Below, one piece after another: positions 1 through 428 of a stretch of DNA of 13,810 nucleotides. This DNA comes from Anaerolineales bacterium (lineage in GTDB: Bacteria; Chloroflexota; Anaerolineae; Anaerolineales; Villigracilaceae): the NCBI GenBank assembly GCA_016928525.1, contig JAFGKO010000011.1, positions 1-13,810 on the forward strand. Direction: 5' to 3'. The notes under the pieces are model-generated. The model ran no database searches, was not told where the DNA came from, and saw only the letters and a program-made list of their open reading frames with translations. The position numbers and the translations under genes were made by a program. How positions within the stretch are numbered: position 1 is the stretch's first letter; each line of letters opens with the position of its first letter.

Positions 1-180
1 ATTCTGCTTGAGGTCGGCGGTGGTCTCAATGGTAGTCAACGCGTGGATGTCCACGATACAGTACACGCACTCATATTCGTCTTGCAAGGCAACGTAATTC
101 TGGATCGCGCCCAGATAGTTGCCCAGGTGCTGGCGTCCCGTGGGGCGGGCGCCGGAAAACACACGTCCTTTTTTCGACAT
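1..180 (-). CDS. trpS: Tryptophanyl-tRNA synthetase, N-terminal part (runs off the window)
   Basis: Class I aminoacyl-tRNA synthetase that charges tRNA-Trp with tryptophan in the cytoplasm. Only the first 60 codons are present; the gene continues leftward beyond base 1. The protein begins MSKKGRVFSGARPTG and carries the HIGH-type ATP-binding motif as QHLGNYLG (residues 17-24), followed by the family pattern AIQNYV and the conserved CIVDIHALT (41-49). This N-terminal layout is typical of bacterial TrpS. The ATG at 178-180 shares one base with the stop codon of the upstream selenoprotein gene (TGATG), and a GAGG Shine-Dalgarno lies inside the end of that gene, six bases before the ATG. Translation is therefore probably coupled to the upstream gene. 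The KMSKS region lies outside the window. Confidence 0.93.
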   Translation of the reverse strand, partial: MSKKGRVFSGARPTGRQHLGNYLGAIQNYVALQDEYECVYCIVDIHALTTIETTADLKQN

Positions 181-428
181 CAACTGCCTCGTTGGATGAT
201 AGATTTGACCAGGCCGACCACCTCGCCGGGTTCGGCGTGACGGTGGGTCTGGAGTTTGGAATAGACCAGCTTGTCGTTCACACTGACCTCGAACTTGCCT
301 CCGTCCGAGGGGACCAGGGTCAGGCCCTGAAGGTCGTACTCGAAGTTCTTAAGCAGCTCGTTCGCCAGGCTCACGGCCCGGTCGGTGTAATGTCATACAG
401 CGCAATAGACGATTTCGATGTTTACCAT
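180..428 (-). CDS. SelW-like (Rdx family) selenoprotein with in-frame UGA as selenocysteine
   Basis: Reading from the ATG at 426-428, the protein is 82 residues if the TGA at 393-395 is read as selenocysteine: MVNIEIVYCAVU, then HYTDRAVSLANELLKNF. The CxxU motif (Cys9, Sec12) sits right after the first beta strand, exactly where SelW/Rdx thioredoxin-fold proteins carry it. The C-terminal half has the family's G-x-FEV-x-VN-x-x-LVYSK signature (about 45-58). A GGAGAG Shine-Dalgarno stands nine bases before the ATG. Without recoding, only a fragment from an internal GTG (374) would be called, and it would lack the redox motif. A hairpin 17 nt after the UGA fits a bacterial SECIS. The family is a small cytosolic thiol/selenol redox protein whose partner is unknown here. 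The natural stop (TGA, 180-182) overlaps the trpS start. Main alternative: a Cys/Sec-site nonsense mutation in a host without selenocysteine machinery; the exact CxxU register makes this less likely. Confidence 0.85.
365..381 (-). promoter_or_regulatory. Candidate bacterial SECIS hairpin of the SelW-like gene
   Basis: On the minus strand, CCGGGC (381-376) pairs with GCCTGG (370-365), giving six base pairs with one G-U, around the five-base loop CGTGA. The loop begins 17 nt after the UGA codon and has G as its second base. Both agree with the published bacterial SECIS pattern (apical loop roughly 16-37 nt after UGA, G near the loop start). It lies inside the coding sequence, as required for SelB-dependent recoding in bacteria. 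Seen: the stem and its spacing. Inferred: SelB binding. Confidence 0.65.

What the first reader, a model, noticed from the sequence alone, without database searches (positions are those of the whole stretch)
180..428. Hidden selenoprotein: a SelW-like gene with UGA in the CxxU position
The frame from 428 reads through one TGA located exactly at the second redox position of the CxxU motif, and the rest of the protein matches the Rdx/SelW family. A hairpin with a 5-base loop starts 17 nt after the UGA. A standard gene caller would report only a 64-residue fragment starting at a GTG and lose the active site. This implies that the host encodes selenocysteine (SelA, SelB, SelC, SelD).
Basis: partly seen in the sequence, partly recalled or inferred. 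Interest (0 to 1): 0.82.

Follow-up and report, generated by a model that had tools for sequence, protein, structure and literature searches.

The report
SelW-like selenoprotein gene in Anaerolineae
This small gene contains a UGA codon that is almost certainly read as the rare amino acid selenocysteine rather than as a stop; it belongs to a known family of small redox proteins that databases often record cut short, without the active site.

Summary
Window 428-180 (-) encodes an 82-residue Rdx/SelW protein (PF10262, E 3e-20) with UGA as codon 12, in C-A-V-U. In 80 of 80 Anaerolineae/Chloroflexota loci found by homology the codon is TGA; in 80 more distant loci it is TGA in 69 and Cys in 11. A hairpin follows at the proper distance, covaries and constrains codon choice; the 11 Cys homologues lack it. 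In 50 relatives' genomes selA passes its cut-off in 47, selB in 45, a clear tRNA-Sec is in 45, and selD passes in 41, each with an in-frame TGA. The window's own genome is not held, so its machinery is inferred. SelW-like bacterial selenoproteins have been in print since 2005, and one is supported by Ribo-seq and proteomics in Campylobacter: a new member of a known kind. Two details I did not find described: the hairpin occurs in two registers 4 nt apart, and selW lies just before trpS in 76 of 80 loci. Of 120 listed database homologues, 92 are 60-65-aa fragments.

The parts
180..428 (-). selW-like gene, 82 codons plus stop; Sec at codon 12
   Evidence: Open frame with one internal TGA; PF10262 72.6 bits, cut-off 22.6; TIGR02174 61.8 bits, cut-off 34.2
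393..395 (-). UGA codon 12, read as selenocysteine
   Evidence: TGA at the same codon in 80 of 80 loci and 69 of 80 distant loci, Cys in the other 11
402..404 (-). Cys9 codon, first residue of the CxxU motif
   Evidence: Sequence; Cys three codons before the TGA in 80 of 80 loci (assertion passed)
365..381 (-). SECIS-type hairpin, register A: 6-bp stem 376-381/365-370, loop CGUGA at 371-375; two lower pairs reach 363-384 in the fold
   Evidence: 6 of 6 pairs; covariation; meets the published bSECIS constraints; predicted fold
440..443 (-). GGAG, likely ribosome-binding site, 11 nt before the ATG
   Evidence: By eye from the sequence printed
1..180 (-). 5' end of trpS (runs off the window); its ATG (178-180) shares one base with the selW stop (TGATG)
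   Evidence: PF00579; sequence; trpS-like gene after selW in 76 of 80 loci
180..374 (-). 64-aa fragment that a table-11 caller reports instead of selW
   Evidence: 92 of 120 listed database homologues are 60-65 aa
690..989 (+). fmdB-type zinc ribbon gene, divergent neighbour
   Evidence: PF09723; divergent neighbour in 39 of 80 loci

Best explanation
This is selW of a Chloroflexota bacterium, most likely Anaerolineae, encoding an 82-residue Rdx-family redox protein with active site Cys9-Ala-Val-Sec12. (1) The ribosome meets UGA at codon 12 [codon shown]. (2) A SECIS hairpin, stem 11 nt and loop 17 nt downstream, recruits SelB with Sec-tRNA(Sec), made by SelA from selenophosphate made by SelD [hairpin shown by covariation; machinery shown in relatives; recruitment inferred from the established bacterial mechanism]. 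(3) Translation goes on to the TGA that overlaps the trpS start [sequence shown; expression inferred]. (4) The protein folds as a thioredoxin-like domain and cycles between selenol/thiol and a Se-S bond with an unidentified partner [inferred from the family].
For: PF10262 and TIGR02174 above cut-off. TGA at codon 12 in 80 of 80 loci, residues before and after it conserved; only TGA (69) or Cys codons (11) in 80 more distant loci. Hairpin (run of at least 5 pairs in register A or B) in 123 of 129 distinct TGA sequences and 0 of 10 distinct Cys sequences; covariation in both registers; AGY-only Ser. Relatives: selB over cut-off 45 of 50, tRNA-Sec above 60 bits 45 of 50, selA 47 of 50, selD 41 of 50, all 42 such rows with one in-frame TGA, tRNA-SeC(tca) in 12 of 12 fetched tRNA loci. 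selA in 68 of 68 genomes of the TGA places and 7 of 11 of the Cys places (compared by hand). Published Sec-SelW in C. jejuni with Ribo-seq and peptides (PMC11955535, passages).
Against: Host genome not held. Fold energy ordinary (z -0.18). A perfect-stem version of the published energy rule passes only 63 of 81 near and 25 of 69 distant TGA sequences, though 0 of 11 Cys. 6 of 129 distinct TGA sequences lack a run of 5 pairs in both registers, and an unrelated register (centre 72) also pairs in 43 of 129. G047 (L054, a record titled chromosome) has neither selB nor selD over cut-off. No protein evidence.
Confidence: 0.95

Rival explanations
1. UGA is read as tryptophan or another sense amino acid genome-wide (code 4/25 type), giving CxxW.
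For: 27 of the 28 full-length database homologues listed show W at residue 12 (15 of 15, 12 of 13; the other has L).
Against: 13 other window genes (3623 codons) hold no internal TGA, use TGG 45 times, and one ends in TGA. The aligned codon is Cys, never Trp, in the 11 of 80 distant loci without TGA. The W entries come mostly from short contigs and look like code-4 gene calls (inference; their DNA was not seen).
Confidence: 0.01
2. UGA is decoded as cysteine by a suppressor tRNA-Cys(UCA), so the product is CxxC.
For: Recoding of Sec UGA to Cys is known elsewhere (recalled, no call); Cys occupies the site in 11 of 80 distant homologues.
Against: Relatives carry selA, selB and tRNA-Sec; ARAGORN types 12 of 12 fetched tRNA loci as tRNA-SeC(tca); a SECIS hairpin would not be needed, yet it is kept in TGA sequences and absent in Cys ones. 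A whole-genome search for tRNA-Cys(UCA) was not made.
Confidence: 0.02
3. UGA is a true stop: the gene is decayed, or only the 64-residue GTG fragment is made.
For: Most listed database homologues are such fragments (92 of 120).
Against: The same TGA with intact flanks in 80 of 80 contigs; the fragment lacks the CxxU motif; the hairpin constraint is kept.
Confidence: 0.01

Closest known systems
Bacterial SelW-like selenoproteins (Sargasso Sea set, PMC1088965; sequenced bacteria, PMC1794560; passages)
   Same: Rdx/SelW family, CXXU motif, bacterial SECIS downstream of UGA
   Different: In the passages read no Chloroflexi SelW is named (3 Chloroflexi selenoprotein families are counted); two hairpin registers and trpS linkage are not mentioned there
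Campylobacter jejuni SelW (CJnc60; PMC11955535, passages; NCBIfam NF041051)
   Same: About 80 residues, UGA read by tRNA-Sec, full-length translation supported by Ribo-seq and peptides; the Campylobacter model is the best NCBIfam hit (E 4.5e-22)
   Different: Under that equivalog's cut-off (78.1 against 88 bits); different phylum and gene neighbours
Cys-containing Rdx proteins with solved structures, e.g. PDB 3dex
   Same: Same domain, aligned over residues 4-76, E 9e-10
   Different: 3dex has Cys at the Sec position in the printed alignment; the residues of the other 7 chains were not inspected

Membership tests
Rdx/SelW protein family (PF10262, TIGR02174) | Profile score above the curated cut-off over the whole domain | tested here: met
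   72.6 bits against 22.6, profile 1-73 of 74; TIGR02174 61.8 against 34.2
Rdx/SelW protein family (PF10262, TIGR02174) | CxxU or CxxC redox motif near the N-terminus | tested here: met
   C9-A-V-U12
Rdx/SelW protein family (PF10262, TIGR02174) | Thioredoxin-like fold | not tested
   No model was made; only sequence matches to solved Rdx proteins
Campylobacter SelW equivalog (NF041051) | Score above the equivalog cut-off | tested here: not met
   78.1 against 88 bits
Bacterial selenoprotein gene | In-frame UGA aligned with Cys in homologues | tested here: met
   11 of 80 distant loci have TGC/TGT there, the other 69 TGA
Bacterial selenoprotein gene | bSECIS: loop 3-9 nt, stem 4-16 bp, G in the first two loop positions, spacing 16-37 nt, energy at most -7.5 kcal/mol | tested here: met
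   Window: 5 nt, 6 bp, G at position 2 followed by U, 17 nt, -8.8
Bacterial selenoprotein gene | SECIS supported by covariation in relatives | tested here: met
   Cells changed on both sides: 16 against 6.2 +/- 3.1 (register B), 11 against 2.3 +/- 1.3 (register A); pair-level counts alone do not exceed shuffles
Bacterial selenoprotein gene | Host has selA, selB, selC, selD | not testable with these tools
   No genome held for the window; met in most relatives
Bacterial selenoprotein gene | Sec shown in the protein | not testable with these tools
   Needs mass spectrometry or 75Se labelling

The most novel reading that the evidence does not exclude
Two features act together. First, the Chloroflexota selW SECIS lives in two alternative registers, stem centres 4 nt apart, both presenting GU in a five-base loop, so that SelB accepts both and some genes can form either hairpin. 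Second, because selW ends on or just before the trpS start codon, UGA decoding gates TrpRS synthesis by translational coupling, tying tryptophanyl-tRNA supply to selenium status.
Probability: 0.08. Interest if true: 0.65.

Novelty: new member of a known kind. Interest (0 to 1): 0.38.

Why it matters
It indicates that Sec-containing SelW is common in Chloroflexota, a large and mostly uncultured phylum, while databases often store the protein without its active site or with an apparently false Trp. The two-register hairpin, with natural Cys homologues that lack it, gives a comparative set for asking what SelB needs from a bacterial SECIS. If selW decoding gated trpS, it would be a selenium-dependent control of a tRNA synthetase.

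Tried and rejected
Viral contigs: 43 pattern matches, none a relative. Plasmid records: 27 with Rdx relatives, all under 60% identity; not pursued. Rfam: no match of any family within 250-450 up to E 10. Searching residues 1-40 alone found only P0002 and P0003. One search took a wrong TGA in L011, L060 and L075; searches use the coordinates instead, and those three loci are not in A2 or A3.

A tree to count register switches (81 near rows only, the distant rows being too short after trimming) is poorly resolved: 9 changes by parsimony, 2 forced by starred branches. One starred pair of mixed label includes L024, whose register is ambiguous (5 of 6 pairs in both). I therefore claim no number of switches. 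Tryptophan insertion at this UGA through TrpRS was considered and set aside for lack of a test.

Selections. The 60-bit line for tRNA-Sec was drawn after seeing the gap between 61.1 and 51.3 bits, because the family search rings in all 14 control genomes and is over its cut-off in 5 of them. Searches fetched 80 of 97 places in one stretch of the list (after the 26 nearest rows, down to G558); 17 were skipped (12 marked with a TGA, 1 with a TAG, 4 with no stop), and towards the end rows without a stop were preferred, so 69 to 11 is not a rate. Alignments A2 (21 rows) and A3 (45 rows) were put together by hand after the register of each row had been seen, which favours the percentage paired.

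Full report
1. Observation. The minus strand from 428 to 180 reads MVNIEIVYCAVUHYTDRAVSLANELLKNFEYDLQGLTLVPSDGGKFEVSVNDKLVYSKLQTHRHAEPGEVVGLVKSIIQRGS and ends in TGA. The internal TGA is codon 12, at 393-395. A table-11 caller gives 180-374, 64 aa from a GTG. The protein matches PF10262 Rdx over 73 of 74 profile positions (E 3.1e-20) and TIGR02174 SelT/SelW/SelH above its cut-off; the Campylobacter equivalog NF041051 matches at 78.1 bits, under its cut-off of 88. A GGAG lies 11 nt before the ATG (by eye).

2. Relatives. A protein search gave 1208 hits, 120 listed. By my count of that table, 92 of the 120 are 60-65 aa and 28 are 79-105 aa. The short ones that I aligned begin at residue 19, after the UGA. 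Of the 28 longer ones, 27 have Trp and one Leu at residue 12 (15, 13). Trp is what code 4 gives for TGA, so these look like short contigs called under the wrong code (inference; their DNA was not seen). In genome contigs, 175 stretches encoded a relative and the best 80 loci were kept, with titles of Anaerolineae, Anaerolineales, Chloroflexi/Chloroflexota or genera of that phylum. The codon at this site is TGA in 80 of 80. Two are named strains, Thermanaerothrix daxensis GNS-1 (L062) and Anaerolinea thermolimosa IMO-1 (L079).

3. Wider sample. Of 400 Chloroflexota genomes, 181 have a SelW match. I read 80 of the listed more distant places (not a random sample, see Tried and rejected): the aligned codon is TGA in 69, TGC in 8, TGT in 3. 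A selA search over the phylum sample bearing the same handles found it in 331 of 400 (321 over cut-off). Comparing the tables by hand, selA is present in 68 of 68 genomes of the TGA places (one genome has two) and in 7 of 11 genomes of the Cys places (Fisher p 2e-4). So Cys forms also occur in genomes that have selA.

4. Sec machinery. In the genomes of 50 of the 80 loci: selB over cut-off in 45 (the five without are G006, G009, G036, G045 and G047, and G045 shows two abutting pieces of selB, as of a frame break); tRNA-Sec above 60 bits in 45; selA over cut-off in 47; selD over cut-off in 41, and all 42 such rows hold one in-frame TGA, so SelD appears to be a selenoprotein there too. By comparing the tables, 39 of 50 have selA, selB and a clear tRNA-Sec, and none lacks all three. 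Completeness of these genomes is not told. G047 (L054, titled chromosome) has selA and a 73-bit tRNA-Sec but neither selB nor selD over cut-off, which I cannot explain. ARAGORN types the fetched tRNA loci as tRNA-SeC(tca) in 12 of 12. The window's own genome is not held; in a sample of 400 genomes of one relative's order the best match to its selW DNA is 83% identical over 224 of 249 bases (G005).

5. The hairpin. Counting the U of UGA as 0, two stems occur. Register A pairs 14-19 with 25-30 (loop 20-24); register B pairs 18-23 with 29-34 (loop 24-28). The window has A, 6 of 6 pairs, loop CGUGA. In the window plus 80 loci, 71 have at least 5 of 6 pairs in A, 22 in B, and 81 of 81 in at least one. 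With the distant set added, 123 of 129 distinct TGA sequences have an unbroken run of at least 5 pairs in A or B, against 0 of 10 distinct Cys sequences (p 1.5e-11). Loop positions 2-3 are GU in 65 of 67 A-only and 38 of 40 B-only sequences. Covariation: in register B, 16 cells changed on both sides against 6.2 +/- 3.1 shuffled; in register A, 11 against 2.3 +/- 1.3; none of 500 shuffles reached either. The measures that count pairs (3 and 2) and pair types do not exceed shuffles. The B rows tested in register A show nothing beyond shuffles. Codon choice agrees: Ser at offset 24 is AGC/AGT in 61 of 61 but in 75 of 316 elsewhere in the same genes, and Leu at offset 27 is CTG/TTG in 80 of 80.

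6. Against. The thermodynamic fold of the window is ordinary (z -0.18). One other register (centre 72) also pairs in 43 of 129. The published energy rule applied to perfect stems passes 63 of 81 near, 25 of 69 distant TGA and 0 of 11 Cys sequences; held to the two registers, 48, 17 and 0. No Rfam family matches. The SECIS claim therefore rests on covariation, codon choice and the Cys contrast, not on energy.

7. Published SECIS model. The legend of Fig 2A of PMC13188914 (passages) asks for a 3-9 nt loop, a 4-16 bp stem, G in the first two loop positions, 16-37 nt spacing and a free energy of at most -7.5. The window has 5, 6, G at position 2 followed by U, 17 nt and -8.8.

8. Neighbourhood. 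A trpS-like gene follows selW in the same direction in 76 of 80 loci; 73 match the window's TrpRS N-terminus at 75% identity or more, three (L018, L046, L074) at only 36-40%. In the 70 loci where an ATG could be placed, 38 begin within 10 nt of the selW stop or overlap it, 10 of them by four bases. In the window they share one base (TGATG). fmdB lies divergently upstream in 39 of 80 loci (not all loci reach far enough) and in the window. The pairing supports a real gene; its meaning is open.

9. Code reassignment. 13 other window genes (3623 codons) have no internal TGA and use TGG 45 times; their stops are TAA 8, TAG 4, TGA 1. A genome-wide reassignment of UGA is thus very unlikely.

10. What is known. 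SelW-like was the most abundant selenoprotein family in the Sargasso Sea set, 48 genes with CXXU (PMC1088965, passages). It was listed in sequenced bacteria in 2006; there Chloroflexi is given 3 selenoprotein families, not named in the passages I read, and SelW-like is said to have few or no Cys homologues in Sec-using organisms (PMC1794560, passages). C. jejuni SelW translated through UGA is supported by Ribo-seq and proteomics (PMC11955535, passages). A search for SelW-like with Chloroflexi found only PMC1794560; selenoprotein W with trpS found 3 papers, none on this by title and abstract; a search for SECIS registers listed 7 papers, none on this by title and abstract (I read passages of two of them). 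Papers outside that open library were not searched.

11. Verdict. The kind is known; this member, the two registers and the trpS link are what it adds. Function beyond 'CxxU redox protein' was not settled in any paper passage that I saw.

Noticed in passing
window 178-182 (-); L001-L080: selW and trpS are neighbours in 76 of 80 loci, often overlapping or within 10 nt; the reason for pairing a redox selenoprotein with TrpRS is unknown.
   Followed up: partly
L111-L116 and other rows: selD of these genomes holds one in-frame TGA in all 42 rows over the cut-off, so SelD too appears to be a selenoprotein there.
   Followed up: partly
proteins P0002-P0051 (the 28 full-length ones): 27 of 28 full-length database homologues carry Trp at the Sec position, which looks like gene calling under code 4.
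   Followed up: partly
window 12139-13242 (-): Ribosomal protein S2 has a 142-residue C-terminal tail after the Pfam domain, 60 of them Asp or Glu.
   Followed up: no
window, 13 genes between 690 and 13242: TGA is the terminal stop of only 1 of these 13 genes (TAA 8, TAG 4), yet selW itself ends in TGA.
   Followed up: no
L140 and L147 (one genome, G706): Two selW-like genes with TGA at the Sec codon in one genome; G571 also has two TGA-bearing matches, of which one was read.
   Followed up: no
L054 (G047): A record titled chromosome with TGA-selW, selA and a 73-bit tRNA-Sec but no selB or selD over cut-off.
   Followed up: no
window 4327-5175 (-): A 282-aa protein with a TAT signal match and no other Pfam domain lies next to a Fer4_20/Pyr_redox_2 oxidoreductase gene.
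   Followed up: no
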